From the IMG/VR virus record IMGVR_UViG_3300025853_000283, positions 1 through 36,054 of that record: DNA of 36,054 bases; one strand, 5' to 3'. This DNA comes from a virus. The first letter of the stretch is position 1. Each line of letters begins with the position of its first letter. Shown in pieces: positions 1 to 36,054 of the stretch. The position numbers were made by a program, and so were the translations under genes. Under the pieces are notes generated by a model, which saw only the letters and a list, made by a program, of their open reading frames with translations, did not search any database and had not been told where the DNA came from.

Positions 1-989
1 ATCACGACCTTATCAGTCGTATTGCCACTGATCCCATTGGCAATCTTTGTGAATGGGAGGCTGCTTCCGAACCTTGGTGTTTTCTTGCTGCTTGCGAAGA
101 GTATTATGCTTGTTTTATTGATTGTAGTCGCAGTTTTACCTGCCTACCTATCGCTGTTGACGCCACTTGCTCAGGATTACAAGTCTTGGCAGGGCTCGCC
201 AGAGATAGATCAACGGCTCGATTGGTTAATGTACTCCCTGGGGAGAAACCTCAGGATGCTTACAGAGTCATTGCAGAGGAATCGAAACCACACATTCCAG
301 AACGTTTACTTGAGCACTGGGACCGCAAAGCGGTAAAACGTACTGTAATGACTGTTCCTTACAACGCAAAGCCTATCTCCAACCGTGGTTACATTAAAGA
401 AGCACTGAAGGAGAAAGGTGTTGAGGTTGATAAGGATGAACTTACGGTAATTGTTAAAGCGGTTCGCGAAGCAATGGATCGGATTGTACCCGGTCCAATG
501 CGTGTAATGAAATGGATCGAGATTGAGGTTGCCGCTGCTATTAAACGCGGTGCTACATTTTTACAGTGGGAGACACCCTCTGGTTTTGTCGTCCATCAAA
601 AACTAAATAAATACAAGACCAAGCAAATAGAACTGCAACTACTTGGTCGATGTGCCATGAAAATTGGTGAGGAAACAGACGTGGTTGATGTCAATCACCA
701 TAAAAACGCTACTGCCCCAAATCTTATCCACTCCCTTGATGCATCACTATTACACCTATCTGCAATCCGCTTTGACGCACCGCTGGCCCTCATACACGAC
801 TCGGTTTTGTGTCGTGCTACTGACATGGGTGTTCTTTCATCCATCGTCAGAGAAACTTACATGCACCTTTTTGCAGAGCAAGACTATCTAAAAGATTGGG
901 CAAAACAGATTGGTGCCCTTACTGAACCTCCGATCGTGGGTGACCTAGCTCCCGAATCGGTTATTGAATCTACTTACTTTTTTTGCTGA
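1..989 (+). CDS. T7-like single-subunit RNA polymerase, 3' part (5' end outside window)
   Basis: C-terminal 328 residues of the phage DNA-dependent RNA polymerase that transcribes the middle and late genes. The reading frame is open from base 3 to a TGA at 987-989. Family landmarks by comparison with T7 RNAP are all present: the first catalytic Asp in AVDATCSG (codon at 159, T7 Asp537), Lys in VKRTVMT (336, Lys631), Tyr in VPYNAKP (360, Tyr639) and the HDS motif in ALIHDSV (His 795, Asp 798; His811/Asp812). The stretch matching the promoter specificity loop (LLGRCAMKIG through NATAPN) is about three residues shorter than in T7 and very different, so its promoters should differ from T7 promoters. 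The C-terminal foot ends TYFFC in place of T7 FAFA. The stop overlaps the next gene as TGATG. Only the missing N-terminus limits the call. Confidence 0.96.
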   Translation, partial: HDLISRIATDPIGNLCEWEAASEPWCFLAACEEYYACFIDCSRSFTCLPIAVDATCSGLQVLAGLARDRSTARLVNVLPGEKPQDAYRVIAEESKPHIPERLLEHWDRKAVKRTVMTVPYNAKPISNRGYIKEALKEKGVEVDKDELTVIVKAVREAMDRIVPGPMRVMKWIEIEVAAAIKRGATFLQWETPSGFVVHQKLNKYKTKQIELQLLGRCAMKIGEETDVVDVNHHKNATAPNLIHSLDASLLHLSAIRFDAPLALIHDSVLCRATDMGVLSSIVRETYMHLFAEQDYLKDWAKQIGALTEPPIVGDLAPESVIESTYFFC

Positions 990-3488: not shown

Positions 3489-3564
3489 ACCAAAACCACC
3501 AACCCCGGAAATGGTTGAACGTGCTCAATTCAAAGACAAAACGTATGTCTGGAATTACAAGTGA
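3442..3564 (+). CDS. Small hypothetical protein between primase-helicase and polymerase genes
   Basis: A 40-codon frame from ATG 3442 to TGA 3562-3564, beginning MKNQQSSTL and ending DKTYVWNYK. It overlaps the primase-helicase end by 47 bases. An internal ATG at 3511 gives a 17-codon version beginning MVERAQFK with no overlap. The stop is shared with the exonuclease start as GTGA (3561-3564), which suggests coupled translation, and it fills a gap of 72 bases that would otherwise be empty. The N-terminal part is Pro/Lys-rich; the C-terminal part is charged and aromatic. Not recognised. It could be only a leader peptide delivering ribosomes to the GTG start of the next gene. Confidence 0.45.
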   Translation: MKNQQSSTLTPKGISKPKPPTPEMVERAQFKDKTYVWNYK

Positions 3565-4076
3565 ATCTTGTTTTTGACATAGAAACAAACGGACTACTAC
3601 ATGACCTTACCACAATCCATTGTATTGGCATACATAATCTTGACACCAAGGAGAATCATGCATTCAATGATGTCGGTGGTGAACCAATCACTCGGGCGAT
3701 AGCCATGCTTGAAGAGGCGTGCCACGTTGTCGGGCACAACATAATTAACTTTGACATCCCAGCTATTAATTCGCTATACCCGTTCTTTTGTAAAACAAGT
3801 GGTGTAGTAGATACTTTGTTGCTGTCACGATTGTATAAAACCAACCTTTTGGAAATCGACAAGCAACGAAGATTTAATGGTATGCCAGAGAAGTTGTACG
3901 GCAGGCACAGTCTTGAAGCATATGGCTATCGGCTCGGTACTTACAAAGGAACCTTTGGAAAGGAAACCGATTGGTCAAATTGGTCACAAGAAATGCAGGA
4001 TTACATGATGCAAGACGTTGCAGTGACTACAAAACTATGGATGTATTTCCAGAAATACCTAAGTGGGTCCAATTAG
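3561..4076 (+). CDS. DNA polymerase, 3'-5' exonuclease part (gp5 N-terminal domain)
   Basis: 171 residues matching the proofreading domain of T7 DNA polymerase. Exonuclease motifs: FDIETNG at residues 5-11 (metal-binding Asp6 and Glu8), HNIINFDIPA (Exo II Asp), DTLLLSRL, RHSLEAYGYRLGTYKG and YMMQDVAVTTKL (Exo III Asp). The GTG start at 3561 is required because the first catalytic motif begins at residue 5; GTG overlaps the stop of the preceding small frame. The frame ends at TAG 4074-4076 just after the exonuclease domain, while the polymerase domain continues in the -1 frame. Either a two-polypeptide polymerase, a programmed -1 shift, or a one-base sequence error in a run of four A (4031-4034) explains this. 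Confidence 0.92.
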   Translation: MNLVFDIETNGLLHDLTTIHCIGIHNLDTKENHAFNDVGGEPITRAIAMLEEACHVVGHNIINFDIPAINSLYPFFCKTSGVVDTLLLSRLYKTNLLEIDKQRRFNGMPEKLYGRHSLEAYGYRLGTYKGTFGKETDWSNWSQEMQDYMMQDVAVTTKLWMYFQKYLSGSN

Positions 4077-5317
4077 AAACCCGCGTTGCACAAATCCTAA
4101 CTGAACAAGAACTACATGGATGGTACTTTGACAAGAATGCTGCATGGCAACTTGCATCAACTCTCCGAAGTGAGTTGGAGGGCATTACTGAGTTACTACT
4201 CAACCGGCACCCTTTCGTACCCGGAGAAACTTTCACTCCTAAACGATCTAATCGAACCAAGGGTTACGTTGCAGGAGCAGAGTTCTTAAAACTTAAAGAC
4301 TTAAATCCAACATCACGAGACCACATTGCATGGATCCTAGAGGAGAAGTATGGGTGGAACCCTACGATTTACACAGCAACTGGGAAGCCAGTTATCGACG
4401 AACCGATCCTCAAGGATTGCGTGACGAATGGGATCGAGATTGCCCAGCAGTTCCTGAGGATGTTGGAGATTACGAAGAGCCTTGGGATGATTTCCGAAGG
4501 CGCGAACGCATGGCTGAAGCTATGTACGAAATCTAATCGTATCCACCACCATTGCAGCGTTGCTACTAATACGCATCGTTGTGCACATAGACACCCAAAT
4601 CTTGCGCAAACACCAAGTGATGAAAACTTTAGGAAATTATTTAGAGCTTCGCCGGGACTTACCATGGTGGGTGCCGACCTTAGTGGTATTGAGCTGCGTA
4701 TGCTTGCCCATTATTTGGGTCGGTATGATGAAGGTCGCTATGCCGACATCCTACTCAACGGAGACATCCATCAAGTCAACGCAGATAAAATTGGAGTCTC
4801 CCGTAAATTAGTTAAAACAATTACCTACGCCTTTTTGTACGGAGCGGGTGATGTCAAGATAGGTCATAGTTATGACAAACAACTTTCTACATCCAAAGCC
4901 CAGAAAAAGGGTAAGGAAATACGTGCTGCTTACATCGATGCTATTCCGGGTTTGGCTGAGTTGCTTAAGGCTATCACTAAAGCTGCTGATCGTGGCTTTG
5001 TACGCAGTATTGATCGACGTAAAATTCTTGTTGACAGCCCCCACAAGGCGTTGAATTACTGCCTGCAAAGTGGAGCCGGCACCATCGCAAAGCGGTGGAT
5101 GGTAATAGCAAATGACACTGTAAAGCAGTGCAAATTAGAAGCACACCAGCTTGCCTTTGTGCATGACGAGCTGCAATACGAAAGTCACCACCATCATGTT
5201 GATGACCTTAAGTTTGCTCTTGAAATGTCTGCTGCAGTTGCTGGTGAATACTACAACCTACGAATACCCATTGCAGCGGAAGCTGGTAGTGGGCCAACTT
5301 GGAACGACACCCATTAA
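4037..5317 (+). CDS. DNA polymerase family A, polymerase part (gp5 C-terminal domain)
   Basis: 426 residues from ATG 4037, which lies 40 bases inside the exonuclease frame and in the -1 frame relative to it. Polymerase motifs: motif A VGADLSGIELR (Asp214), motif B KTITYAFLYGAG (Lys260, Tyr264), motif C FVHDELQYE (Asp377), and the ending GPTWNDTH, like T7 gp5 GPNWAICH. Family homology begins at about QLETRVAQILTEQELHGW, close to the ATG. The insertion that binds host thioredoxin in T7 is much shorter here: only about 40 residues separate ELLLNRHPF from NPTSRDHI, where T7 has about 80. A fused product made by -1 slippage would have about 585 residues; T7 gp5 has 704. The TAA overlaps the next ATG as TAATG. 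Confidence 0.93.
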   Translation: MDVFPEIPKWVQLETRVAQILTEQELHGWYFDKNAAWQLASTLRSELEGITELLLNRHPFVPGETFTPKRSNRTKGYVAGAEFLKLKDLNPTSRDHIAWILEEKYGWNPTIYTATGKPVIDEPILKDCVTNGIEIAQQFLRMLEITKSLGMISEGANAWLKLCTKSNRIHHHCSVATNTHRCAHRHPNLAQTPSDENFRKLFRASPGLTMVGADLSGIELRMLAHYLGRYDEGRYADILLNGDIHQVNADKIGVSRKLVKTITYAFLYGAGDVKIGHSYDKQLSTSKAQKKGKEIRAAYIDAIPGLAELLKAITKAADRGFVRSIDRRKILVDSPHKALNYCLQSGAGTIAKRWMVIANDTVKQCKLEAHQLAFVHDELQYESHHHHVDDLKFALEMSAAVAGEYYNLRIPIAAEAGSGPTWNDTH

Positions 5318-11820: not shown

Positions 11821-12014
11821 TGTCAACTATTACTGAAGACGGCAATCGTCAAAACATCTACCCCAAAGAACCTCGAATGTATATGGACCCAAACTATCTT
11901 CAATCACATAACGAACGAGCAGAATTGATCAACGGACGCTTGGCAATGCTTGGTGTTATCGCTGCTATTGGTGCGTACGTAACCACTGGTCAATTGATTC
12001 CTGGTGTATTCTAA
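11820..12014 (+). CDS. hli: High-light-inducible protein (Hli, one-helix chlorophyll-binding)
   Basis: 64 residues with a single transmembrane helix. The chlorophyll-binding signature is ERAELINGRLAMLGVIAAIG (Glu35-x-x-Asn38-x-Arg40), then GAYVTTGQLIPGVF. Hli proteins sit in thylakoids, bind chlorophyll and carotenoid and quench excess excitation around photosystems. Cyanophage copies are thought to protect the photosynthetic apparatus during infection, working with the phage D1 encoded 1 kb downstream. The N-terminal 30 residues are polar and presumably stromal/cytoplasmic. Translationally coupled on both sides (TAATG at each end), it is embedded between scaffold and capsid genes and so is probably expressed with late genes. 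Confidence 0.95.
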   Translation: MSTITEDGNRQNIYPKEPRMYMDPNYLQSHNERAELINGRLAMLGVIAAIGAYVTTGQLIPGVF

Positions 12015-12682
12015 TGACTATTAAACTTACCGATGCCGCTGTTTATTATGGCGGCCTAGAACATCAACGTGAAGCTTGGGAGTTCTTGCAAAGTAAACTC
12101 ACCTCGGAAGTGTTGGATGAGTTTGGTAAGTTGTATAGGAAAAAAGAATCACGTCCGGTTTATGTAACTCTTTCTCAGTTGGCACACATTTGGGATTGTG
12201 ATGAAAGTCTCATTCAACCACGTGAAATTGATGAACTCAATAGTTGTCTTGAGGAATTTGAAATTACCACGCCACTACGGATCAGTCATTTCTTAGCACA
12301 AACTGCCCATGAATCCGGTGGTGGTCGTTGGAAAAAAGAATTGTCGGATGGTTCCTATCTTGAAGGTAGGTGGGATCTAGGCAATAAAAAGACTGGTGAT
12401 GGCCCCCGCTTTAAAGGTGCCGGCTATATCCAGCTCACTGGAAGAGAAAACTATCAACGCTTTTCTGATTACCTTGGTGATGCGAAAGTAATGGATGGTT
12501 GTAATTATGTAGCGGAAGTATATCCGTTTACATCTGCTGGCTTCTGGTGGAAAGATAACAACATGAATGAATTGTGCGACACACATCCAACAGTCAAACA
12601 AGTCACTCTTAAAGTTAACGGTGGTTATAACGGTCTTGATGACCGACAAAAATATTTCTCTCGTTGCTTAGATGTTATCTAA
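12014..12682 (+). CDS. GH19-type (chitinase-like) endolysin
   Basis: 222 residues. The catalytic region, from about residue 75, matches glycoside hydrolase 19-type phage lysozymes: RISHFLAQTAHESGGGRW (catalytic Glu100), GSYLEGR (second Glu117), GDGPRFKGAGYIQLTGRENY and LKVNGGYNGLDDRQKYF. These enzymes cut glycan strands of peptidoglycan at lysis. The N-terminal 70 residues (AAVYYGGLEHQREAWEFLQ) form a separate small helical module whose function I do not know. No signal peptide or anchoring helix is visible, so release would need a holin, and none is recognised in this window. Overlaps hli by one base (TAATG). T7 has no such enzyme here (its lysozyme is the gp3.5 amidase). Confidence 0.9.
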   Translation: MTIKLTDAAVYYGGLEHQREAWEFLQSKLTSEVLDEFGKLYRKKESRPVYVTLSQLAHIWDCDESLIQPREIDELNSCLEEFEITTPLRISHFLAQTAHESGGGRWKKELSDGSYLEGRWDLGNKKTGDGPRFKGAGYIQLTGRENYQRFSDYLGDAKVMDGCNYVAEVYPFTSAGFWWKDNNMNELCDTHPTVKQVTLKVNGGYNGLDDRQKYFSRCLDVI

Positions 12683-12702
12683 GTCCTGTATTTTATTTTA
12701 TT

Positions 12703-13008
12703 ATGCTATCTACACTTATTGCTTCTGCTGCTATCTGGACCGCTTCTTGGTATGGACCTGGCTATCACGGTAAAATTACCGCTAATGGTGAAGTCTTTAA
12801 TCAATGGGGTTCAACTGCTGCACACAAAACCTTGCCCTTCGGGACTCGCGTAAAAGTATGCAACAGGGATCTATGCGAAACAGTAAGAATTAATGATCGC
12901 GGACCTTTTATTTACGGAAGGGACATCGACCTTTCCCAAGGAACTGCTGAGCGCATTGGTATTATCAACCAAGGCGTTGCTCCTGTAACTTACACAATTA
13001 TCAATTAA
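12703..13008 (+). CDS. RlpA-like double-psi beta-barrel protein (putative lytic transglycosylase)
   Basis: 101 residues from ATG 12703. Almost the whole protein is an RlpA-type barrel: ASWYGPGYHGKITANGE, STAAHKTLPFGTRVKVCN (His41), VRINDRGPFIYGRDIDLS (Asp65) and GVAPVTYTI. His and Asp are the residues needed for activity in bacterial RlpA, which cuts glycan strands lacking stem peptides. The SPOR domain of bacterial RlpA is absent. Cys53 and Cys58 could form a disulphide, fitting a periplasmic location. The ATG start leaves a short hydrophobic lead (MLSTLIASAAIW). A TTG at 12664, 19 bases inside the endolysin gene, would give MLRCYLSPVFYFIMLSTL plus IASA, a more convincing signal peptide with a possible cleavage site. 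Paired with the endolysin, it looks like a second lysis or wall-remodelling enzyme. Confidence 0.85.
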   Translation: MLSTLIASAAIWTASWYGPGYHGKITANGEVFNQWGSTAAHKTLPFGTRVKVCNRDLCETVRINDRGPFIYGRDIDLSQGTAERIGIINQGVAPVTYTIIN

Positions 13009-13019
13009 TTCAATAATCA

Positions 13020-14084
13020 ATGACCGCTATTGCAACCACTTCTAGTCAACGGCGGTCATCACTGTGGGATTCCTATCTCAACTGGGTGACCTCTACCGAC
13101 AATCGTATTTATGTAGGGCATTTTGGTGCTCTAATGATTCCGTGTATCCTCACGGCTACAACCGCATTTATCTTGGCATTCATTGCCGCTCCACCCGTAG
13201 ACATTGATGGCATTCGTGAACCAGTCGCCGGCTCACTTCTGTACGGCAACAACATCATCTCCGGTGCAGTTGTCCCAAGCAGTAACGCCATCGGGCTGCA
13301 CCTATACCCCATCTGGGAAGCTAGTTCGCTTAGCGAATGGCTATACAACGGCGGACCTTATCAGCTTACCGTCTTCCACTTTCTTATCGGTGTCTTTGCT
13401 TACATGGGACGCGAATGGGAACTTAGTTATCGACTTGGAATGAGGCCCTGGATCAGTGTTGCCTATTCTGCTCCAGTCGCGGCTGCAACAGCCGTATTCC
13501 TTGTGTATCCTTTTGGTCAAGGTTCCTTCTCTGATGGAATGCCGTTGGGTATCTCGGGAACTTTCAATTATATGCTTGTGTTCCAGGCAGAACACAATAT
13601 CCTCATGCACCCATTCCACATGCTTGGCGTGGCGGGTGTATTCGGTGGCAGCCTTTTTAGTGCGATGCACGGCAGCCTTGTCACATCCAGTCTTGTTCGT
13701 GAAACGACTGAAAACGAAAGCCATAACTATGGTTATAAGTTTGGTCAAGAAGAAGAAACATACAACATTGTAGCCGCACATGGATACTTTGGTAGACTCA
13801 TTTTCCAATACGCTTCATTCAACAATAGCCGTAGCCTTCATTTCTTTCTTGCTGCTTGGCCCGTTGTTGGTATTTGGTTTGCTGCTTTGGGCGTTTCGAC
13901 CATGGCTTTCAATCTTAATGGTTTCAACTTTAACCAGAGTATTGTCGAAAGTGAAGGACGTGTTATCAACACTTGGGCGGATATTTTGAACCGCGCTGGT
14001 CTTGGTATGGAAGTAATGCACGAGCGAAACGCTCACAACTTCCCGCTAGATCTTGCAACACATACCGCCCCATTAGTTGGGTAA
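13020..14084 (+). CDS. psbA: Photosystem II D1 protein
   Basis: 354 residues, full length, very close to cyanobacterial D1 with five transmembrane helices. Numbering is +2 against standard D1. Functional residues are intact: TyrZ (Tyr163), Asp172, Glu191/His192 and His200 in [14 protein letters not shown], and the C-terminal manganese ligands in [15 protein letters not shown]. Processing after that Ala would remove an 8-residue tail (THTAPLVG). Glu132 (standard 130) is the high-light type, where the low-light form has Gln. His34 replaces the usual Trp32 in YVGWFG. Phage D1 replaces photodamaged host D1 so that photosynthesis continues during infection. No intron is seen. It starts 11 bases after the RlpA-like gene with no ribosome site. 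Confidence 0.99.
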
Positions 14085-14254: not shown

Positions 14255-15430
14255 ATGGCTAACATGAATACCTGGAGTTACGGTTCTAGCGCCGCTCCAG
14301 TTCTTACTAATACTTATCCTTCCGGCGTACAGCCTATTGCTGATAAGTACGCAACTTATCTGAAACTGTTTAGTGGTGAGCTTTTCAAGGCTTACCAAGA
14401 TGCACAAGTTGCAAAAGGTACTGTAACTAGCCGTACCCTGCGTAACGGTAAGTCTATGCAGTTCATCTTTACTGGTGGGCTTGATAGTCATTACCATACC
14501 CCCGGTACTCCTATTCTTGGTCAAAAGACTGATAGTGGCGGCGTACAGCCTGGTGCAACAGGTTATGGTGACTTGACTGGTGATGGCGGCCCTGTGACTA
14601 ATGGATTGCCCGTAGCAGAAAAGACTATCATTTGTGATGACCTGCTGATTGCTAGCACCTTCGTCTACAACCTTGATGAAGTGTTTGCTCATTACGATCT
14701 GCGTGGTGAAATTGCCCGCAAGCTCGCATACGCACTGGCTAATCGCTACGACCAAAACATCTTTAAGACCGTTGCACAAGCTTCTCGTGAAGCAGCTGCT
14801 GTTACTGGTCAGACTGGTGGTAACGTCCTTTACATGGGCTCTGGTAATGCTTCTAACGCCGAAGCACTTGTGCAATCTTTCTACCGTGCTGCACAAATCT
14901 TCGACGAAAACAACATTCCTTCCAATGGACGTGTTGCTGTACTCTCCCCCGAGCAGTACTACGCATTGATTACCCAGGTCTCCAATAATGTGATCTCTCC
15001 CATCAACCGTGACGAGCAAGGCACTGCTGTGCGCTCTGGTGAGTGGGGTTATCAAATTGCTGGTATCACCATCAAGAAGTCGAACAATGTAATGGCTGAT
15101 CGTTTCGATCACGTACGTGTTGCTGGTGAAAACAATGACTACCGCATCACTGGTGCCGATGGTACTGGTAATGGTGCTGGTACCTGTGGTCTTATCTACC
15201 ACAAGGATTCCGTGGGTGTTGTTGAAGCTGTTGGTCCTCAAGTGCAGACCACCAATGGTGACGTTTCCGTGATGTATCAGGGCGACCTGATCGTCGGTAA
15301 GGTTGCTATGGGTGCCGGTACTCTGAACCCTGCTGGTGCTATCTCCCTGCAAGCCGGTGCAGCTGCAAGTGCTGGATCTGGCCGACTGCATAGTTGGGAT
15401 GCGACCAATAAGGTCTGGACTACCCCCTGA
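14255..15430 (+). CDS. Major capsid protein, gp10-like
   Basis: 391 residues (T7 gp10A has 345), building the icosahedral head. Recognised by T7-like signatures: LKLFSGELFKAYQDAQV, SRTLRNGKSMQFIFTGG, EKTIICDDLLIAS, YDLRGEIARKLAYALANRYD and a C-terminal domain with SPINRDEQGTAV and GYQIAGITIKKSNN. Codon choice looks more even and C-rich than in neighbouring tail genes, as expected for a very highly expressed gene. No gp10B-type frameshift is apparent: both shifted frames stop within a few codons of the TGA. A strong terminator follows at once, isolating capsid transcription from the tail genes as in T7. Confidence 0.97.
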   Translation: MANMNTWSYGSSAAPVLTNTYPSGVQPIADKYATYLKLFSGELFKAYQDAQVAKGTVTSRTLRNGKSMQFIFTGGLDSHYHTPGTPILGQKTDSGGVQPGATGYGDLTGDGGPVTNGLPVAEKTIICDDLLIASTFVYNLDEVFAHYDLRGEIARKLAYALANRYDQNIFKTVAQASREAAAVTGQTGGNVLYMGSGNASNAEALVQSFYRAAQIFDENNIPSNGRVAVLSPEQYYALITQVSNNVISPINRDEQGTAVRSGEWGYQIAGITIKKSNNVMADRFDHVRVAGENNDYRITGADGTGNGAGTCGLIYHKDSVGVVEAVGPQVQTTNGDVSVMYQGDLIVGKVAMGAGTLNPAGAISLQAGAAASAGSGRLHSWDATNKVWTTP

Positions 15431-19338: not shown

Positions 19339-20028
19339 ATGAGTTTTGTTCAAAGCCTTGAATCGCTATTTGGTATTGATTACGATCAACAAATGGCATC
19401 CGCAAGGAAACAATATAATGAACGTGAACGAGTTGCTCGTATCCAGCACAGCCTTGGCGTTGAAGCAACTAACAAACGAAATGCTTACAACTTAAAAATA
19501 TATAATCTCCAACAGCAGATGCATCAGCAGCAGATGCAATGGAACCAACAGTTTGCTCAAGAAGCTTACAACAACGCTCAAACTCAGTTCAACAATGCAG
19601 TTGCTTCTGCAATGCTTAATGGAACTGCGATGACACAGCAGTTGATGGAGGCGGAAGGTACAGCAGCAGCAAGTGGTTCCACAAGCAGGTCTGCATTACG
19701 TGCTGAATCAATCCGTACCCTTGGAGAATATGGAAGGCAAAGTGCAATTCTGGATGAAAACATTTACGGCAGCTATAAAGGCTTACAGCGTTCACTTGAA
19801 TCTATTACCAATCAATGGAATATTGCTAATCAACAGTCGTACGCGAATGTTGCTATTGCACCCATGATGGAAGAAGCTGCACCATACATTGCATCTCAAT
19901 TTAATGCACCACAGCAGCGTAGTATCTGGTCCCGTGCCCTTGATTCAACGTTTAAAACAGCGGCAGCTATCGAGCCGTTTATGCCGGACACTGACAATGT
20001 AATTAGTACCTTGGCCAAATTTGCTTAA
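19339..20028 (+). CDS. Internal virion (core) protein, gp14-like
   Basis: 229 residues (T7 gp14 has 196). Assigned by position between the gp12- and gp15-like genes and by composition: an N-terminal charged helix, a Gln/Met-rich segment around residues 55-75 (YNLQQQMHQQQMQWNQQF) and an Ala-rich helix (AVASAMLNGTAMTQQLMEA), consistent with a helical protein ejected into the outer membrane to start the DNA-translocation channel. GAGG at 19329-19332 is one of the few plausible ribosome-binding sequences in the window. Sequence similarity to T7 gp14 is not obvious by eye. Confidence 0.8.
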   Translation: MSFVQSLESLFGIDYDQQMASARKQYNERERVARIQHSLGVEATNKRNAYNLKIYNLQQQMHQQQMQWNQQFAQEAYNNAQTQFNNAVASAMLNGTAMTQQLMEAEGTAAASGSTSRSALRAESIRTLGEYGRQSAILDENIYGSYKGLQRSLESITNQWNIANQQSYANVAIAPMMEEAAPYIASQFNAPQQRSIWSRALDSTFKTAAAIEPFMPDTDNVISTLAKFA

Positions 20029-20036
20029 AAGTATAA

Positions 20037-22688
20037 ATGTCTTTTAAAACAAGAGTACCGTATCAAGGCACACCGATTGGACCTGGCTCTAGTCCTGCAC
20101 GTGTACCTGATCCAACTCCCGCGTTACGACGCAACATGGAGACCGAACTACGGTCTCTTCAAAATAGAGCCAATCAATTTCAAGACTATACGCAGCGACA
20201 GCAAGCTATAGATGAAATTACCGACAAGATTTCTCAAGCTAATCAAGTAGCAGACCTTCGGTCTTTCTCCAAAACTCTTGACACCGCTCTTAAAATTGGC
20301 GGTGAGATGTATGTAGAAAATCAACAAGCCCAAGGTCTAGCTTTTGTTGAAGCTAATCGCGAGCAACTTGATGAACTTAATTTAGCAGAATTAGCGAAGA
20401 AACAGCGCGATCAAGAACTGAACGATAAGGCGGTAGAGCTTTCTAAAAACACGCAGAACTACGGAATCATTCACGCAGTTAAACAGCTTAGTGGTCATAA
20501 GCGTAACGTAGTTTACCAGTATCTTTTTAGTCAGATTGGTGAAAAATACCTACCTTCTTTTTGGGACTTTTATCGCTCTGCCCCGCGTCCTGCTAACGAT
20601 GAGCCTGAATTTCGCGCAGTAATGGCGGAGTTCCGTCAAGCCTCTTTAAAAGAATTTGCTGAACTACCTCCAGCATATAGAGCTAAATATCTAGAGCCCG
20701 GCGTAACAAAGGCTGAGGCACAGATTATCAAGCAATGGCGTGATGAAAACAACCGAATTCTTTCGGAGAAAGATAGTAATGATAATCTAACTATCTTTCG
20801 CCAAACAAGAGATATTAATCAATTTCTAAAGTCAGAAGCATCCGTACTTCAACCACGTAATAATTCTTGGCAGCCAAAGCTTTTCAACGGTGCTTGGGAA
20901 ACGCTTATGAATAATATTAAAGGCATGATTGTGACGGGTGAGATTAACTCTATAGATGAGATTATCAAATTAGGAAAACAAACTATTGAAGGTCAAACGG
21001 GATCTAAAGGCGAGGCACTTGTATTTTGGGATGATAACGGTGAGAAGATTATTGGTCACCATGCAAGTAAAGGTGCAGAGTTAATTCAATACTTTGAAGA
21101 CCATCGAATGAAGGAGTTCCGTGACCAACAAAATCTTGAAACCATGGAGCAGGTTGCGCTTAATGAAACCATTAAAAAAGAATTAATGGAACTTGCAAAG
21201 AGTTCTCCAGATGGTTTGTTAGATCCAGAATATGTCAAAAGTTTACCGAGTGTTCAACGTTACATAGATATGTATGGTTCGGAACCTTCAGCACTGAGCA
21301 TTGCATCTAGTCGTAACCGAGATCAAAAAGTACGTAAATACAAACAAGAGTTAGTTGATGCTTTGGCTTTGCGTTTGGATTTGAATAGGCAGACTCTTAA
21401 GGACATTGCTGGCGAAGATGCGAAGTTTTATTTTGATAACCTAAATCGTGTTACTTCAATTGAACAGTCACGGAAAGAAGCTGGTATCAGTGATCGCATT
21501 GCAGAAGTTGAAGGCGAGATTGATACAGTTATGAATCTTGGGCCCGATTCAAACAAAGGTGTGGATCGTGGTGCTGTTAAAGCTGAAGCCGCTAATAGGT
21601 TTATTTCATATCTTAATCTATTGCGGACTCAAATGGACCTGCAATCTGCAGGTATGGAGGCTGCCAAACGTGTAAGGGATGAAATTAAAGCTGGAGCTAC
21701 TGATCAAAACAGTGTGTTCTTCCAAGGTCCCTTAAAGAACTTTCCTAAAATTACTCAATCTAGCTCTCAAGCCGTTCAAGCGCGTGACGCCTTGATTCAA
21801 AAAGCACGTAAAGAAGTATATGCAATTAATCAAGCTGCTATGAAATATGGTTCTGCCGCCATGGATCAACCGGGGTTGTTTGGGTCGTTAGAGTTGTTGA
21901 TGAAAAATGCAGAACAACTAAAAACTACTGGTACTTACGACAACAAACTGCTTGACTATGCGGTCCATCAATTCGGCTTGAATGGTAGGACTCACGCTTT
22001 GCAGCGGGCACTCGGTGCGTATGGTAAAACGTTTTCCTTTAGTTTGCCAAAGGAGACGCTACCACGAAATGTAAAGCGCACACTTCTTGATCCCAAAGCC
22101 ACTCCGCGCCAGCAAGCAAGAGCTGCTTATGGTACTTTTCATAATGATCCACTGCCTACATTGGGTGGTGTATTGCCTGCCTCTTATGATCCTAACAGTT
22201 CCTCTCTAGTCGCTAGCGCAAACAACTTAACTCCTGAAGAAATCGCATGGTTGCGTACTATTCGATTTGCTGAAGGTACAGATAAAGTCAACGGTTATAG
22301 CATAATGTTTGGAGGTGGTACTTTTGATAACAACGGGCCACACCCAAATAGAGTTGTAAAAACTTCTGGTTATGCTAGTGCTGCAGCTGGTGCTTATCAA
22401 TTTTTACCTGGCACATGGAATGAGCTTGGTGGTGGCTCTATGACACCTATGCGTCAAGATGAGTATGCCATTAAACTTATTATTAGAAGGGGAGTCAATC
22501 CTAAGAAACCACTTGATAGGAACTCATTAAACAAATTGGCACCTGAATGGGCAAGTCTACCGACACTTAATGGTCGTAGTTATTATGGCCAACCAGTAAA
22601 ACAATACAATGTACTTTTCAATTATTACCAACGTGAACTAGAGCGGGCGCGTCAACATCAAATGATTCGATCTGGTCAAATTATTTAA
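20037..22688 (+). CDS. Internal virion (core) protein, gp15-like, with C-terminal muramidase domain
   Basis: 883 residues (T7 gp15 has 747). The N-terminal 720 residues are mostly charged helices, as in the ejected core protein that spans the periplasm. The last 150 or so residues (from about 731) are different: WLRTIRFAEGTDKVNGYSIM, then FGGGTFDNNGPHP and SAAAGAYQFLPGTWNELGGG match the lambda endolysin R fold (GH104-type lytic transglycosylase), with the catalytic Glu expected at Glu746 in FAEGTD. The domain would cut peptidoglycan at DNA entry. In T7 the entry transglycosylase is of another fold and sits at the N-terminus of gp16. Lysis-time use is less likely because the domain is part of a core protein. 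Confidence 0.9.
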   Translation: MSFKTRVPYQGTPIGPGSSPARVPDPTPALRRNMETELRSLQNRANQFQDYTQRQQAIDEITDKISQANQVADLRSFSKTLDTALKIGGEMYVENQQAQGLAFVEANREQLDELNLAELAKKQRDQELNDKAVELSKNTQNYGIIHAVKQLSGHKRNVVYQYLFSQIGEKYLPSFWDFYRSAPRPANDEPEFRAVMAEFRQASLKEFAELPPAYRAKYLEPGVTKAEAQIIKQWRDENNRILSEKDSNDNLTIFRQTRDINQFLKSEASVLQPRNNSWQPKLFNGAWETLMNNIKGMIVTGEINSIDEIIKLGKQTIEGQTGSKGEALVFWDDNGEKIIGHHASKGAELIQYFEDHRMKEFRDQQNLETMEQVALNETIKKELMELAKSSPDGLLDPEYVKSLPSVQRYIDMYGSEPSALSIASSRNRDQKVRKYKQELVDALALRLDLNRQTLKDIAGEDAKFYFDNLNRVTSIEQSRKEAGISDRIAEVEGEIDTVMNLGPDSNKGVDRGAVKAEAANRFISYLNLLRTQMDLQSAGMEAAKRVRDEIKAGATDQNSVFFQGPLKNFPKITQSSSQAVQARDALIQKARKEVYAINQAAMKYGSAAMDQPGLFGSLELLMKNAEQLKTTGTYDNKLLDYAVHQFGLNGRTHALQRALGAYGKTFSFSLPKETLPRNVKRTLLDPKATPRQQARAAYGTFHNDPLPTLGGVLPASYDPNSSSLVASANNLTPEEIAWLRTIRFAEGTDKVNGYSIMFGGGTFDNNGPHPNRVVKTSGYASAAAGAYQFLPGTWNELGGGSMTPMRQDEYAIKLIIRRGVNPKKPLDRNSLNKLAPEWASLPTLNGRSYYGQPVKQYNVLFNYYQRELERARQHQMIRSGQII

Positions 22689-22697
22689 TTAACCTAT

Positions 22698-25600
22698 ATG
22701 GAACCAAATAATCCTTACGAGGAGGTTTTAGGTAATGTTGGGGGGTTTTCTCCCGAAGACTTAAAACGAGCAGAGATCGTTGAATCTGCTGCTAATCTTA
22801 CTACTCAAAATAACCAACAAGAGCTACAAAATTCTGAGGATGGCGTCGTTGATGCTACGGCTCAAGATGACCCACAAAAGAAGCAGGAGGAACAACGAAG
22901 ACTCACTCTTAAGGATATGCAAAAAGGAGTGGAAAAAACTCTTGATCTTGCCAATCAAGGAAGGGAGTTGTTCCAATCACCTGCTGCAGGTCTTATGGAT
23001 TTTGGTATTGATTTTCTTAATGCTTTCCCGAAACGTCGGGAAATGGAAAGCATCTACCAAAAGAATAGATCAGGTCTTATACCTGTAGACAACGAAGGTA
23101 ACATTAAACGTCTACCTAAATTTAAAAATCCAATTGCTCAAGCATTCAGAGACATCGCATCGTTTGTAGTACCAAATGTATTACTTGGTCGTGGTGTCTC
23201 TTCAGCGGTTGGAGCAGCAAAATTACCAACGTTTGCAAAAGATCCATTGGTGCAACTTTTAGGTGGTACCGCTTTATCTGCTGGTGTTGGTGCTGGTGTT
23301 GATTTTACTAACATTAATAGCAAAGAAGGTGATAATCTTGGCGGTACATTGAAGAAGGCAAGCCCCGAATTATTTTGGTGGATTCCAAATAGTATCGCTA
23401 CTTTAGACTCTGATTCACCAGATATTAAACGAGCAAAGAGTGTTCAAGAAGGAGCTATTTTAGGACCTTTTACCGATCTTCTGTTGGGTGCCGCAACTAT
23501 TGTTAGGGGTGTCAAAGGGATGATGGGTATTAAAAGCAAGTTTATCCCGGAGAATGAAACTGCTAAGGCATTCTGGAAAAACCCAGCTCAACATGCAGAT
23601 AAAACTAAAACTGAGCTTGCGAAATCACCGCTTGATGTGCAGGCGTTATCCAAAGCAGAGACTGGAAATGAAATGCTAGCTCTTCTTGGTAAATCTGAAG
23701 AAGCGGTTGAGCAGTCTGCAAAAGCACGTGCTGATGCACTAGATGAACTCGGTTCATACAACAGCTACATGGATCCAACTTTAGATCAACCTATGTTGGG
23801 TGTACATGATGTCTTTGAACCAACTGAAACTGCTATTCGATCCGTCGATCCCCATGGTGTTCACGGTGCTGCTGTAGATGCCGCTCGCATCCAAAACAAC
23901 ATCGGTACTAGTTATGGTCGTTTGGGCAGCATCATTACGGAAGCAGCCCTGAAGCATGGTCTAGACGGTGACTCCATCATTCGTCGTGACTTCATCAATA
24001 TGATTAAGAAGTCACTTCAAGAAGGTGGTGACTACTCTTACAAGGGGTTGATACATGTATCAAGTAAACAGATCAAAGATGCTGGAGAAAATCTAGCCTC
24101 TGTACTTGTTGACCCACGTATGGATGTAACCAATATGCGTGCCATTTTGGAAGATTATCGAAACGAAATGGAGGGCATTAAAGTTCTTGACAAGGCTGGT
24201 TACCAAGGTGTTTTTAAAGCAATGAAGGCATACACCGATGAATACTTTAACCTTGATACCCTAAAGGCACAGGCATACCTTGCACATTCCCTTTCGGGAC
24301 AAGTAAGTGATATGGCTGAAGGTATGCGTCTAGTGGATGGTACTGATGCTGTTGAACGAGCACAAGAGCAAATCATTGATCGACTTACTTATTTGTTTGC
24401 CGAAAAGGGACTCGCTAGCAAGCTTGGTGGTAGCAACCTACGAAATATGCGGATGTGGAAGGCGGTAAAAAACGCTGATCCAAAAGACGGAAAGGCTGCC
24501 GTGGAGGCTATGCATGAGGAAGCTCGTGATGCTCTTTCTGACACCGTACGTAGAGCCCGTGATTATAGGGATACTCTCAACAACATCCGCAAGGACAACC
24601 CGGAGTTTTTGAAGCCACTGATGTTCGTTAATGAACTTACAGATGGTAATGTTGATTCAATGTATAAATTAAATAATTGGGTCGCCAATAAGTTGGGTCT
24701 TTTAAATAAAGCATTTATTGATGGTCAACCGGAGATCCCCTCGGAAGTAATGAAGGGTATCTGGGGTAACTATTACAACTCCATTCTTTCTGCTTTCGCT
24801 ACTCCATTTAAAGCAGCTTATAGTTCTGCGGCATTGCTGCTGGAAAAACCAGTTGCAGTGATTGCGGGTGCTGCAATTGGCAGGGATATGAAGACAATGC
24901 GTCGTGGTTGGTATCAATACAGTGCTGTAATGGATACCCTTTCAAAGGGTTTCAACCATATGGGATTGGTATTCCGCAAAGCTTCTGCTGATCCAAATAG
25001 TGTTCCCTATATTATTCGTGATGATATTGCTGTTAAGAATAAAGACACAATTCAAACTCTAAAAATGTATGCAAATGCTGCTGCAGAAAATGGTGAGTTT
25101 GGTCCACAAATTATGGTTGATCTTGCGGAGAACTTAAATGCATTAAGTGAGCACCCATGGCTACGCTTCAGTGTTAATGCTATGTCTGCAATGGATGGTT
25201 TTACACGAGCTGTTATTGCTAATGCAGAGGCACGGGGTAAAGCATTTGACGATATGCTGGAATCATCTGGAGGAAAGATCGACGGTGCCGTATTAAAGAA
25301 AGCATCAAACGACTATTATAACTCCATGTTTGATAGCACCGGATTTATTACCGATGAAGCTGTTGAATATGCTACACGTGAAGTAGCAATGAGTCTTGAC
25401 TCACCAGTGGTTAACGCCATGAGTGGTGCTATTGCCAGGTACCCAATGTTGAAACCATGGATGATGTTTCCTCGTACTAACGTTAACATTTTGAGTTCAT
25501 TTTGGAATCAAAGCCTGTTAAGCGCCTTTGTTGGTGACTACAATAAAATTGTAGGTCATGAAGGTAAACAGCATACTGTTGCTGAAATTAAGGAGATCCT

Positions 25601-26735
25601 TAAATCACGAGATATCCCATTCGATGATCATGCAATGCCGCGATTTAGGTCCCTGCAAGCAGAAATCAAGGGACGAGTAGCTATTGGTTTTACAGCTACA
25701 GCCATGGCTACGTTCATGTTCATGAATGATAGGTTGCGTGGTAATGGTCATTTTGACAAAGCACGCCAACAACAACGATTAAAAATGGGTTGGAAACCCA
25801 AAACTTTTAAAGCACTTGACGGTAAATGGTATAGCTATGGAGAGATTGGTCCACTTGCAGATTGGTTGGCTACAACTGCTGATGTAATGGATAATTTTGA
25901 TCTACTTAGTGTTGCTCAATTTGAAGAATTTAGACGTAAAACTGGTTTTATTCTTGGTGCAGCCTTGTTTAACCGCTCGACTCTTGCAACTTTAGAACCA
26001 CTGATGGACATTCTTTCGGGCAACCCTGTGGCATCTAACCGCTGGGCAGCAACGATGGTAAGCGGCTTCATGCCTCTCTCTGGTCAACGTAACGAGCTGG
26101 GTCGTCTTCTGTACCCAGAGCTGCGCATCATGGATCAGGAGTTTGGTGAACTGCTTCGCAATCGCAATAACTTCCTAGATGGTCTTGATCCAGCTGGTGC
26201 ACTGCCGGTTGCTTATGACTATATCGATGGAACCCCAATCAACAAACCAGAAGGATTCTTTAGCCGATTAATGCATGCATATCTACCAACCAAAGTTTAC
26301 GAGGATATTTCACCAGAACGTCAGTTTATGATTGACATTGAATATGATGCACAACCTACATTTATGAAAAGTAGTGATGGTAGTGTTAGGTACACACCCC
26401 GTCAACGAGCAGAGTTGTTTTCGTTGGTTGGTAAACATCAACATTTCCACGATAAGTTGGTTGAGATTAAACGTGATGCAGACAAACTCAAGATGGTTGA
26501 AACATTAAGGCGTGCACGTAAAAATAACCTAACCTCTGATCAAGAATCTTTAGAGGAGTTTGGTGGCATTTATAGGCGTATTGATAGAGCTCTTACGGAA
26601 GCCAAACGAATGGCAGAGGCTGAGCTTAGTGACCGTGCAGTTATTCAGCAAGAAGCTACAGACATGAGGTCGCGTGATTACACTAATCGCCAAGGTTTGT
26701 TAAACAGCGATGTGCTTGATTTAACCAACAAATAA
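22698..26735 (+). CDS. Internal virion (core) protein, gp16-like
   Basis: 1,345 residues (T7 gp16 has 1,318). Ejected protein expected to form the inner-membrane part of the DNA translocation channel. Assigned by size, order and helical content. The N-terminal 70 residues are acidic and Gln-rich, likely disordered. Hydrophobic Gly/Ala stretches occur at about residues 150-200 (FVVPNVLLGRGVSSAVGA; LGGTALSAGVGAGVDF), 260 and 700-730. A conserved-looking segment near residue 870 reads SNDYYNSMFDSTGFITDEAV. The soluble lytic transglycosylase domain that begins T7 gp16 is not visible; the wall-cutting function appears to have moved to the gp15-like protein. Confidence 0.88.
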   Translation: MEPNNPYEEVLGNVGGFSPEDLKRAEIVESAANLTTQNNQQELQNSEDGVVDATAQDDPQKKQEEQRRLTLKDMQKGVEKTLDLANQGRELFQSPAAGLMDFGIDFLNAFPKRREMESIYQKNRSGLIPVDNEGNIKRLPKFKNPIAQAFRDIASFVVPNVLLGRGVSSAVGAAKLPTFAKDPLVQLLGGTALSAGVGAGVDFTNINSKEGDNLGGTLKKASPELFWWIPNSIATLDSDSPDIKRAKSVQEGAILGPFTDLLLGAATIVRGVKGMMGIKSKFIPENETAKAFWKNPAQHADKTKTELAKSPLDVQALSKAETGNEMLALLGKSEEAVEQSAKARADALDELGSYNSYMDPTLDQPMLGVHDVFEPTETAIRSVDPHGVHGAAVDAARIQNNIGTSYGRLGSIITEAALKHGLDGDSIIRRDFINMIKKSLQEGGDYSYKGLIHVSSKQIKDAGENLASVLVDPRMDVTNMRAILEDYRNEMEGIKVLDKAGYQGVFKAMKAYTDEYFNLDTLKAQAYLAHSLSGQVSDMAEGMRLVDGTDAVERAQEQIIDRLTYLFAEKGLASKLGGSNLRNMRMWKAVKNADPKDGKAAVEAMHEEARDALSDTVRRARDYRDTLNNIRKDNPEFLKPLMFVNELTDGNVDSMYKLNNWVANKLGLLNKAFIDGQPEIPSEVMKGIWGNYYNSILSAFATPFKAAYSSAALLLEKPVAVIAGAAIGRDMKTMRRGWYQYSAVMDTLSKGFNHMGLVFRKASADPNSVPYIIRDDIAVKNKDTIQTLKMYANAAAENGEFGPQIMVDLAENLNALSEHPWLRFSVNAMSAMDGFTRAVIANAEARGKAFDDMLESSGGKIDGAVLKKASNDYYNSMFDSTGFITDEAVEYATREVAMSLDSPVVNAMSGAIARYPMLKPWMMFPRTNVNILSSFWNQSLLSAFVGDYNKIVGHEGKQHTVAEIKEILKSRDIPFDDHAMPRFRSLQAEIKGRVAIGFTATAMATFMFMNDRLRGNGHFDKARQQQRLKMGWKPKTFKALDGKWYSYGEIGPLADWLATTADVMDNFDLLSVAQFEEFRRKTGFILGAALFNRSTLATLEPLMDILSGNPVASNRWAATMVSGFMPLSGQRNELGRLLYPELRIMDQEFGELLRNRNNFLDGLDPAGALPVAYDYIDGTPINKPEGFFSRLMHAYLPTKVYEDISPERQFMIDIEYDAQPTFMKSSDGSVRYTPRQRAELFSLVGKHQHFHDKLVEIKRDADKLKMVETLRRARKNNLTSDQESLEEFGGIYRRIDRALTEAKRMAEAELSDRAVIQQEATDMRSRDYTNRQGLLNSDVLDLTNK

Positions 26736-33164: not shown

Positions 33165-36054
33165 ATGAGACAAAACTATCTACGTGCTGCGGCTGGTTAT
33201 CGTATTAATCAGCCAACAGCTGATGGTGATGAACACATTGCAAACACAGAATTACTGCTTAAAGGCGAGGGTAGCAACGGTCAAACCAACAACACGTTTG
33301 TAGACAGCAGCGCCAGCAGCCACACAATTACTCGCAACGGAGACACCACTCAAGGCAGCTTCAGTCCCTTTTCACCCAAGGGATGGAGTATGTATGTGGA
33401 CGGAAATTCCACCACTCATGGTATTTTGGGGCCAAATGTTACTGATACGTTAGGCGACGGTAAAGGTAATTGGACTATTGAGCTTTGGCATTATCTTGAC
33501 GAAAACACTGTAAATAATGGCACTGCTCACAACGGAATCCGACTTGTAAATAATTGGTATTTTTACAACAACATTGACGGATGTTTTGAAATAATTTTAA
33601 ACTCAAACAGGCAATATGCTTGCGGTGTTCAACGTGAAACTGGATACGGTCCACATAACGCCAATTCTTTTAACACGGGAATTGGCATTACGGGAACCTC
33701 TACTGCAGTACTGAACACCTGGAACCATGTTGCAATGGTTAAGCAGGGCGACGTTTTGAGGTTGTATGTTAATGGCGTACAAGAAGGAACCGTAGATGTT
33801 ACGCTTTTAACAACCTGGGGTTTTATGACCCAATCACGCGCTAATAATATTGCAGTTGGGAGGTGGTTTAATTATGGAAGCAATTCGCCTGTAAACTCTC
33901 GATACGGTCGTGGTTATTTTTCTAATTTGCGGATAACGCAAAATGCCGTTTACCCAGACGGCACCACTTTTACTCCAGACACTGAACCACTTACGGCAAT
34001 AACAGACTGCACACTGCTTACACTGCAGGACAATCGTTATGTAGACAATAGCTCTCTAAATTCAACTATTACTGCCTACGACGACGCTGCCATCAAACCC
34101 ACAAGTCCATTCAGTGGTAATCGGGAGTACCCAAAGGCGAGTTACTTTAGTGGGAAGTTTGACGGAAGTAATGATTACCTCAATTGCGGTTCAAATTCTG
34201 ACTTTGCATTTGGTACTGGTGAGTTTACTGTTGAAGCTTGGGTATACAGCAATGGAACGCAAGCAACTGCTGCTGCTATTTTTTCAATAGGTAGCGCTGG
34301 AGGTGATACCGGAAGTTGGCAGTTAGATGCCTCCATGGGCTCTTACCCTTCCAAGTGGGGATTCGGTACCGCATACCATGCCAACTATGTGACTAGTTCT
34401 AGTAACATAGTTCACAACCAATGGACTCATCTGGCTGTAAGTCGTGACTCAAGTAATGTAGTCAGGTTGTTTGTTAACGGTGTTTTAGATGACTCGCAAA
34501 CTATATCAACCAATTTATCTACAACAGGCCCTTTTAAGATAGGTGTTAACCGTGGTACTAATGCTTATTTTGATGGTTATATCTCTAACGCACGTGTAGT
34601 TAAAGGAACCTGTCTTTATACTACCACTTTCACACCACCCACTGCACCGCTCACACCCGTTGCTAACACCAAGCTGCTAACCCTGCAGGATAACTACCTT
34701 GTTGACCACAGCCCAAGCGGACACAGCATCACCAACAACGGTGGTGTAACGCTTGAACCGGAGTCACCGTTTGATAATTCAACATATCCGTTAAGTGGGA
34801 CGTTTTATAGCGGTTATTTTAACGGTACTAGTGATAATCTGACTATTTCTGATAGTGCTGATTTTGATTTTGGTAGTGGTGATTTTACTGTTGAAGGTTG
34901 GGTGAAACCACTGAGTAATAATGACACCATGTATTTTGGTCAATGGGTTGGACTGGCATGGTTCTTTGGTGTATCAAACGGTACCCTTCAGTTTTCTTCT
35001 TATAGTGGTGGAAATTATTACGTTGAAAATTCTGGAGTATCTGCCTCCACTTATTACAACAAGTGGACACACATTGCTGCAACAAGAGAAGGGAACACTC
35101 TAAGAATCTTTGTAAACGGTGAAAAGAAGGGTGGTGATCACACAATATCCCATACTTTCAACAATAGTAGCGGTAACTTTGAAATTGGCGCGAACAGTGA
35201 AACATCACCAACGCAATACTACAACGGATACATCAGTAACGTTCGTATTGTAAAAGGGACCGCTCTTTACACCACCGACTTCACCGTACCTTCTGAACCA
35301 CTCACTGCCGTCAGCGGTACAAAACTGCTCACCCTGCAAGACGCAACAATTCAAGACAACAGCGCTTCTAGCCACTCTATTACTAACAACGGAGCAACTG
35401 TCACCGAGATTGCACCATTTGGAACCGCGTTGATTGATCGTGCGGGGAGTGTTTATGCTTCTGGTTCTTATGATTATTTAAGAGCAAATACAGGATATCA
35501 TTCTGATTTTGCGTTTGGAACTGGTGATTTTACTGTTGAGGGTTGGGTATACCCACTTTCTGCTAATGACAATTTCTTTGACACTAGGACAACTCTTACT
35601 AACGCTGGTTTTGGGTTTGGAATTGGCAATGGTACTAGCACTAAACCTGGTGTATGGGATGGAGCTGGTATCAATTGGGAGCTTCAATCTACAGGTGCTT
35701 ACGTTAGGCGAAATGAGTGGACTTATATAGCTTTTGTCCGCAAAAGTCAAGTTTTAAAAGTATATATTAATGGCATTGAATCTGGTAGCGCTACATCAAC
35801 TCGTGATCTTACTGCTGGCGGTAGTAATATTATGACTAGCATTAATGCTGTTGTTGACCCTAACTATACTGGCGACACATTTAATGGCTATCTTTCTGAC
35901 CTTCGTGTCATCAAGGGAACCGCGCTCTACACCTCCAACTTCACACCACCTACCGCTCCACTGCAACCAATTACCAATACTAAGTTACTGCTAAATGGTA
36001 ACAACGGTGGTGTTGAAGATTCGTTGGGTAAACAAAACCTTTCAACTGGTGGCG
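33165..36054 (+). CDS. LamG (concanavalin A-like lectin) repeat protein, 3' end outside window
   Basis: At least 963 codons from ATG 33165, still open at the window end. The first residues are MRQNYLRAAAGYRINQP. Then come four complete LamG-type modules and the start of a fifth, each opening with an (L/K)LLTLQDN-like strand and a VD(N/H)S motif, followed by FGTGEFTVEAWVY (or DFTVEGWV), a W(T/N)H(L/V)A strand, LFVNGV, and closing with YISNARVVKGTCLYTTTFTP. LamG folds bind glycans or proteins and are common in cyanophage adhesins. No signal peptide or membrane helix is seen in the visible part. It is probably a virion-attached host-recognition protein, but a non-virion role cannot be excluded. 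It is not a T7 gene. Confidence 0.85.
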   Translation, partial: MRQNYLRAAAGYRINQPTADGDEHIANTELLLKGEGSNGQTNNTFVDSSASSHTITRNGDTTQGSFSPFSPKGWSMYVDGNSTTHGILGPNVTDTLGDGKGNWTIELWHYLDENTVNNGTAHNGIRLVNNWYFYNNIDGCFEIILNSNRQYACGVQRETGYGPHNANSFNTGIGITGTSTAVLNTWNHVAMVKQGDVLRLYVNGVQEGTVDVTLLTTWGFMTQSRANNIAVGRWFNYGSNSPVNSRYGRGYFSNLRITQNAVYPDGTTFTPDTEPLTAITDCTLLTLQDNRYVDNSSLNSTITAYDDAAIKPTSPFSGNREYPKASYFSGKFDGSNDYLNCGSNSDFAFGTGEFTVEAWVYSNGTQATAAAIFSIGSAGGDTGSWQLDASMGSYPSKWGFGTAYHANYVTSSSNIVHNQWTHLAVSRDSSNVVRLFVNGVLDDSQTISTNLSTTGPFKIGVNRGTNAYFDGYISNARVVKGTCLYTTTFTPPTAPLTPVANTKLLTLQDNYLVDHSPSGHSITNNGGVTLEPESPFDNSTYPLSGTFYSGYFNGTSDNLTISDSADFDFGSGDFTVEGWVKPLSNNDTMYFGQWVGLAWFFGVSNGTLQFSSYSGGNYYVENSGVSASTYYNKWTHIAATREGNTLRIFVNGEKKGGDHTISHTFNNSSGNFEIGANSETSPTQYYNGYISNVRIVKGTALYTTDFTVPSEPLTAVSGTKLLTLQDATIQDNSASSHSITNNGATVTEIAPFGTALIDRAGSVYASGSYDYLRANTGYHSDFAFGTGDFTVEGWVYPLSANDNFFDTRTTLTNAGFGFGIGNGTSTKPGVWDGAGINWELQSTGAYVRRNEWTYIAFVRKSQVLKVYINGIESGSATSTRDLTAGGSNIMTSINAVVDPNYTGDTFNGYLSDLRVIKGTALYTSNFTPPTAPLQPITNTKLLLNGNNGGVEDSLGKQNLSTGG
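33249..36054 (+). repeat. Tandem LamG-module coding repeats (period about 650-760 bases)
   Basis: Module starts lie at about 33249, 34011, 34671, 35322 and 35982, judged from the repeated LLTLQD-type strand. Spacings are 762, 660, 651 and 660 bases. The modules differ throughout at DNA level, so they are old duplications and not recent slippage. The first is the longest and most diverged; the fifth is cut off. Confidence 0.8.

What the first reader, a model, noticed from the sequence alone, without database searches (positions are those of the whole stretch)
22200..22660. Cell-wall hydrolase sits on gp15 instead of gp16, with a different fold
T7 carries its entry transglycosylase as an SLT domain at the N-terminus of gp16. 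Here the gp16-like protein starts with a disordered acidic region and no such domain, while the gp15-like protein ends in a lambda-R-like GH104 domain (FAEGTDK, FGGGTFD, SAAAGAYQF). This implies a non-homologous replacement and relocation of the peptidoglycan-piercing activity within the ejectosome.
Basis: partly seen in the sequence, partly recalled or inferred. Interest (0 to 1): 0.65.

Follow-up and report, generated by a model that had tools for sequence, protein, structure and literature searches.

The report
Swappable wall-cutting domain on cyanophage gp15
A marine cyanophage carries its presumed cell-wall-cutting entry enzyme as a lambda-lysozyme-type domain at the end of one injected protein (gp15), where its relatives carry several other, unrelated wall-cutting enzymes, so this is a plug-in slot; the gp15 location was already known from other T7-like phages, but I found no description of the range of swaps.

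Summary
The 883-aa gp15-slot protein (20037-22688) ends in a lambda-R-type (GH104) domain: E about 1e-8 to lambda R in the PDB, with Glu746 aligning to lambda Glu19. The gp16-slot protein (22698-26735) has no detectable SLT. A lysozyme on the gp15 equivalent instead of gp16 is published for SP6, K1-5/K1E, phiKMV and PhiM1, and in this clade it is the rule. Across 64 relatives the gp15 body is shared, but its C-terminus carries SLT (commonest; T7's own SLT hits it directly, E 2e-11), SLT+M23, Hydrolase_2, GH104-type, Phage_lysozyme2-type or glucosaminidase domains. About 20 class changes are needed on the gp16 tree, and swap footprints lie at the gp15/gp16 junction. The order [gp15 body]-[hydrolase]-[gp16 body] is the same in T7; only the gene boundary lies on the other side of the cassette. 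A separate endolysin gene (12014-12682) argues that the GH104 domain serves entry. Unexpected: named Prochlorococcus podophages (0 of 6) and low-GC relatives (0 of 17 in all) show no recognisable hydrolase there, against 54 of 56 higher-GC ones. Enzyme activity and ejection are inferred, not shown.

The parts
20037..22688 (+). gp15-slot ejection protein, 883 aa
   Evidence: ORF; synteny between gp14 slot and gp16; body homologous to 62 other gp15-slot proteins; T7 gp15 tunnel ranks 1 and 3 in the PDB fold search, not significant
20037..22106 (+). gp15 body, residues 1-690
   Evidence: shared with relatives of every terminal class; residues 160-670 modelled with pLDDT mostly 70-96
22107..22232 (+). 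variable linker, residues 691-732
   Evidence: 44% identity to L002 against 85% in the body
22233..22616 (+). GH104 (lambda-R-type) domain, residues 733-860
22272..22274 (+). predicted catalytic Glu746 (= lambda R Glu19)
   Evidence: alignment with lambda R, S-T4, ZF40, Ssp-JY37
22698..26735 (+). gp16-slot internal virion protein, 1345 aa, without SLT
   Evidence: phrog_6651, 1015 bits; no SLT
19339..20028 (+). gp14-slot protein, 229 aa
   Evidence: position and size; phrog_29086, function unknown
12014..12682 (+). separate lysis endolysin (chitinase-like families)
   Evidence: phrog_181 endolysin 5.3e-40
13020..14084 (+). psbA (photosystem II D1): marks a cyanophage
   Evidence: phrog_182 7e-187

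Best explanation
The gp15-slot protein carries the phage's virion-associated cell-wall enzyme as a C-terminal lambda-R-type (GH104) lytic transglycosylase. It is packaged in the head core, leaves through the tail ahead of the DNA, and opens a local hole in the host cyanobacterium's peptidoglycan so that the gp15/gp16 channel can cross the periplasm. The enzyme sits in an exchangeable cassette at the gp15/gp16 gene junction: the two flanking ejection-protein bodies are retained while the hydrolase between them is swapped for unrelated wall enzymes. Shown by sequence: domain identity and catalytic residue, location, absence of a detectable SLT in gp16, one shared gp15 body with many terminal domains, swap footprints. 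Inferred: enzyme activity, packaging and ejection, role at entry.
For: GH104 identity and Glu746; purifying selection, dN/dS 0.16; a separate endolysin for lysis; no SLT in gp16; known precedent for gp15-equivalent lysozymes acting at entry (PMC5380687, PMC11440229); one gp15 body with 16 terminal groups, several of them wall enzymes; about 20 class changes on the gp16 tree; L036/L028 and L020/L039 differ at the end of gp15 between similar flanks.
Against: No experiment. gp15 and gp16 names rest on synteny and size; no sequence homology to T7, SP6, phiKMV or PhiM1 was found and the fold match to T7 gp15 is not significant. The GH104 part of the model has low confidence. Some relatives have no recognisable enzyme in the slot, so an enzyme there is not universal.
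Confidence: 0.82

Rival explanations
1. The GH104 domain is also the lysis enzyme: gp15 made late, or cleaved, helps release progeny as lambda R does.
For: GH104 is best known from endolysins; most database hits are free lysis endolysins.
Against: The window has a separate endolysin gene, 12014-12682; the domain is fused in frame to an ejection protein in every member of its lineage.
Confidence: 0.06
2. The domain has lost catalysis and serves as a structural or peptidoglycan-binding part of the tunnel.
For: No biochemical data.
Against: The catalytic Glu and 23 other invariant GH104 columns are kept; dN/dS is 0.16; neighbours carry other wall enzymes at the same place.
Confidence: 0.05
3. gp16 has a second, unrecognised wall enzyme that does the piercing, and GH104 on gp15 is accessory. 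PhiM1 is reported to have an endolysin-like domain inside its gp16 equivalent (PMC11440229).
For: Residues about 280-480 of the gp16 model include a few strands and higher confidence.
Against: No family, sequence or fold match to a wall enzyme; but the model is of modest confidence, so this is weak.
Confidence: 0.1

Closest known systems
phiKMV gp36 and PhiM1 gp42 (Autographiviridae gp15 equivalents with C-terminal lysozyme)
   Same: Same gene order, similar size (898 and 904 aa), wall enzyme at the C-terminus, gp16 equivalent without SLT
   Different: Different enzyme family by profile (phrog_2083/phrog_13211, not phrog_90) and no detectable homology of the bodies
SP6 gp36 / K1-5 gp15 equivalents
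   Same: C-terminal lysozyme on the gp15 equivalent, gp16 equivalent lacking the SLT part (PMC5380687, PMC8954989)
   Different: Enzyme is Phage_lysozyme PF00959, not GH104
T7 gp16 N-terminal SLT
   Same: Presumed entry role; enzyme encoded at the gp15/gp16 junction; the same SLT family is common on gp15 in relatives of this phage
   Different: Enzyme belongs to the other protein and another family
Lambda R endolysin (GH104)
   Same: Same enzyme family and catalytic Glu
   Different: Free lysis enzyme, not part of the virion
S-CBP4, S-RIP2, Syn5 and other Synechococcus podophage gp15-slot proteins
   Same: Homologous gp16 in all, homologous gp15 body in all but Syn5 (no body link found), wall enzyme at the gp15 C-terminus
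   Different: Other enzyme families in the slot
Synechococcus phage S-T4 putative muramidase
   Same: Nearest GH104 relative found (38% identity, E 1e-11), also inside a larger protein, near a baseplate gene
   Different: T4-like cyanomyovirus (Kyanoviridae); unrelated carrier protein

Membership tests
GH104 (lambda R) lytic transglycosylase | significant sequence match to the family | tested here: met
   E 1.5e-8 to 3d3d/1am7; phrog_90 4.5e-21
GH104 (lambda R) lytic transglycosylase | catalytic Glu and invariant motifs | tested here: met
   Glu746 = lambda Glu19; EGT, GY, HP, YQ, QD and WAS.P columns kept
GH104 (lambda R) lytic transglycosylase | lambda lysozyme fold | tested here: inconclusive
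   low-confidence model of this part, no fold match
GH104 (lambda R) lytic transglycosylase | 1,6-anhydro product | not testable with these tools
   needs muropeptide analysis
Virion-associated lysin on the gp15 equivalent (phiKMV gp36 / SP6 gp36 type) | C-terminal wall enzyme on the protein encoded just before gp16 | tested here: met
Virion-associated lysin on the gp15 equivalent (phiKMV gp36 / SP6 gp36 type) | sequence homology to phiKMV, SP6 or PhiM1 gp15 equivalents | tested here: not met
   profile comparison without signal
Virion-associated lysin on the gp15 equivalent (phiKMV gp36 / SP6 gp36 type) | present in virion and ejected | not testable with these tools
   needs proteomics or cryo-EM
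T7 gp15 (ejectosome tunnel) family | gene position between gp14 and gp16 slots, size | tested here: met
T7 gp15 (ejectosome tunnel) family | sequence homology | tested here: not met
T7 gp15 (ejectosome tunnel) family | tunnel fold | tested here: inconclusive
   7k5c_A and 6yt5_A rank 1 and 3 of 350,542 chains, E 0.11 and 0.31
T7 gp16 with N-terminal SLT | SLT at the N-terminus of gp16 | tested here: not met
   no SLT in the window gp16 or 73 homologues
Marine picocyanobacterial podovirus | cyanopodovirus-type gp16 and a cyanophage psbA | tested here: met
   psbA; gp16 hits 48 records, named ones Synechococcus and Prochlorococcus phages

The most novel reading that the evidence does not exclude
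The gp15/gp16 junction of T7-like phages is a general plug-in slot for the entry wall enzyme: the flanking ejection-protein bodies stay, the gene boundary may fall on either side of the cassette (T7: enzyme on gp16; cyanophages, SP6, phiKMV: on gp15), and the enzyme is swapped among unrelated families. Podophages of Prochlorococcus have repeatedly lost it or replaced it by something unrecognisable, perhaps because of their hosts' thin wall.
Probability: 0.5. Interest if true: 0.65.

Novelty: new variant of a known kind. Interest (0 to 1): 0.5.

Why it matters
It turns an apparent oddity of one phage into a testable rule about how short-tailed phages adapt entry to host walls: one protein scaffold with an exchangeable wall enzyme (SLT, GH104, SleB-like Hydrolase_2, Phage_lysozyme2-type, glucosaminidase, M23). 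That diversity offers natural chimaeras for enzyme work and clear questions: does the terminal enzyme track host peptidoglycan, and do Prochlorococcus podophages enter without a wall enzyme? It also corrects the reading of the T7 arrangement as the ground state.

Tried and rejected
Reading the finding as a unique relocation: rejected after the isolate and metagenome survey and the literature. The domain as lysis endolysin: disfavoured by the separate endolysin. Sequence homology of this clade's gp15/gp16 with T7, SP6, phiKMV and PhiM1: none found. Fold confirmation of GH104: failed, probably because only eight divergent sequences cover that part of the alignment. Raised synonymous divergence in the GH104 part as evidence of recent recombination: dropped, because windows elsewhere in gp15 are as high. 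The first locus search with all nine gp16 failed for lack of conserved stretches. Two family searches failed on wrong frames and were repeated. Claiming that T7's SLT and the cyanophage gp15 SLT are the same cassette that slid across the boundary: not claimed, because other phage SLT families match the gp15 SLT about equally well.

Full report
What is there. The window (36,054 bp IMG/VR virus record) encodes a cyanopodovirus structural module: portal, scaffold, tail tube, gp14-, gp15- and gp16-slot proteins and a large fibre-like protein, plus psbA. The gp15-slot protein is 883 aa. Residues about 733-860 are a lambda-R-type GH104 domain: E 1.5e-8 to lambda lysozyme structures, phrog_90 4.5e-21, hits to lambda-type endolysins and to an S-T4 muramidase. 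Glu746 aligns with lambda Glu19, and 24 columns are invariant across seven sequences including lambda R, S-T4, ZF40 and Ssp-JY37. The domain is under purifying selection (dN/dS 0.16).

gp16 has no detectable SLT. Pfam finds none in the window's gp16 while it finds T7's (1.7e-31). T7's SLT and a profile built from it find none in the window's gp16 or 73 homologues, but the profile finds 25 SLT domains on gp15-slot proteins. A hidden enzyme elsewhere in gp16, as reported for the gp16 equivalent of PhiM1 (PMC11440229), is not excluded.

The location is known. [quoted passage not shown] PMC5380687 lists SP6 gp36 and phiKMV gp36, the latter with a C-terminal lysozyme. PMC11440229 describes a lysozyme-like domain (718-903) in the gp15 equivalent of PhiM1. 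I checked these on the sequences: SP6 gp36 has PF00959 at 770-905; phiKMV gp36 matches a tail-lysozyme family at 755-877; and the gp16 equivalents of SP6, phiKMV and PhiM1 start matching the T7 gp16 family profile only at position 206, 168 and 192, so they lack the SLT part.

The same slot in relatives. From 80 viral contigs carrying a gp16 homologue plus named isolates I took the ORF just upstream of gp16; the two genes nearly abut (-14 to +42 nt). Of 64 full-length gp15-slot proteins, 63 are joined through their bodies by phmmer, Syn5 being the exception. C-termini fall into 16 groups. Recognised enzymes: SLT alone or with M23; Hydrolase_2; GH104 type (nine, in two subtypes); Phage_lysozyme2-type (weak in Pfam); glucosaminidase; a phrog_1200 endolysin type. 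S-CBP3 has SLT_3 and S-SRP01 FlgJ-like plus M23. S-RIP1 and S-TIP37 give only weak GH104-type matches in a very small database. T7's SLT hits these gp15 proteins directly, best E 2.3e-11.

Swapping. On a gp16 tree of 73 rows the terminal class needs 22 changes for 17 labels; SLT needs 6, Hydrolase_2 4 and GH104 5, forced by well-supported branches. Two labels are imperfect (L028 proved to be a phrog_1200 type, L079 is a fragment), so 'about 20' is the fair reading. Two pairs show the footprint directly: L036/L028 have 50-76% identical bodies, then 4-22% over the last 170 residues, then similar gp16; L020/L039 are mostly 80-100% identical over gp15 but 22% in the segment after the SLT, and their gp16 DNA is 88-100% identical. 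In the window's own lineage the four R-type GH104 members form one clade (100% support), next to an SLT-bearing relative.

A model. In T7 the SLT is the first domain of gp16; in the others the hydrolase is the last domain of gp15. In every case the gene order is [gp15 body]-[hydrolase]-[gp16 body]. The change between T7 and this phage can therefore be described as a gene boundary on the other side of an exchangeable cassette. This is an inference: sequence homology of the bodies between T7 and this clade was not detected. The only structural hint is that T7 gp15 tunnel structures rank first and third among 350,542 chains, without significance. I do not claim which arrangement is ancestral.

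An unexpected pattern. No low-GC (<39.5%) member, six named Prochlorococcus podophages included (P-SSP7, P-SSP3, P-GSP1, 9515-10a, P-SSP10, NATL1A-7), shows a recognisable terminal hydrolase (0 of 17). Of the higher-GC rows 54 of 56 do, counting S-SRP01 after and the weak S-TIP37; the exceptions are L052 and L056. Five independent pairs on the tree, none opposite, cannot reach 0.05, and divergence or composition could hide a domain. That Prochlorococcus has a thin wall is my own knowledge, not tested here.

Verdict. The window is one case of a slot of unusual enzyme diversity. I found no paper describing this diversity in cyanopodoviruses, but the held library covers open-licence papers only, so novelty of the diversity itself is provisional.

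Noticed in passing
gp15-slot proteins of low-GC loci L009, L011, L042-L044, L063, L065, L067, L068, L077, L085, L086, L089, L103-L106: No recognisable terminal wall enzyme in any low-GC member, named Prochlorococcus podophages included, while 54 of 56 higher-GC members have one. Five independent pairs agree, too few for significance.
   Followed up: partly
L020:3925-6711 and L039:3786-6683: Near-identical gp15/gp16 pairs that share the SLT but differ in the last domain: M23 in L039, an unidentified domain in L020 (reads like an M15-type peptidase by eye, untested). A very recent swap.
   Followed up: partly
window 12014-14084: Lysis endolysin and psbA lie between the scaffold gene (11092) and the major ORF at 14255, inside the structural module.
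   Followed up: no
window 33165-36053: Open frame of at least 963 aa running off the contig, with repeated modules that look LamG/concanavalin-like by eye; perhaps a second receptor-binding or tail protein.
   Followed up: no
window 186-989 and 3561-5317: The RNA polymerase match covers only the C-terminal part of the family (the contig probably starts inside the gene), and the DNA polymerase region is spread over two overlapping frames, perhaps a split gene or a frameshift.
   Followed up: no
L100:2200-4365: The nearest GH104 relative is inside a 721-aa protein near a baseplate gene of the T4-like cyanophage S-T4, so this enzyme type may be shared between tail types as a virion enzyme.
   Followed up: partly
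L052:3954-6698 and L056:3025-5760: gp15-slot C-termini of about 200 aa with no enzyme match (L052 also none in the PDB) although sister lineages carry Hydrolase_2; possibly an unrecognised wall enzyme.
   Followed up: partly
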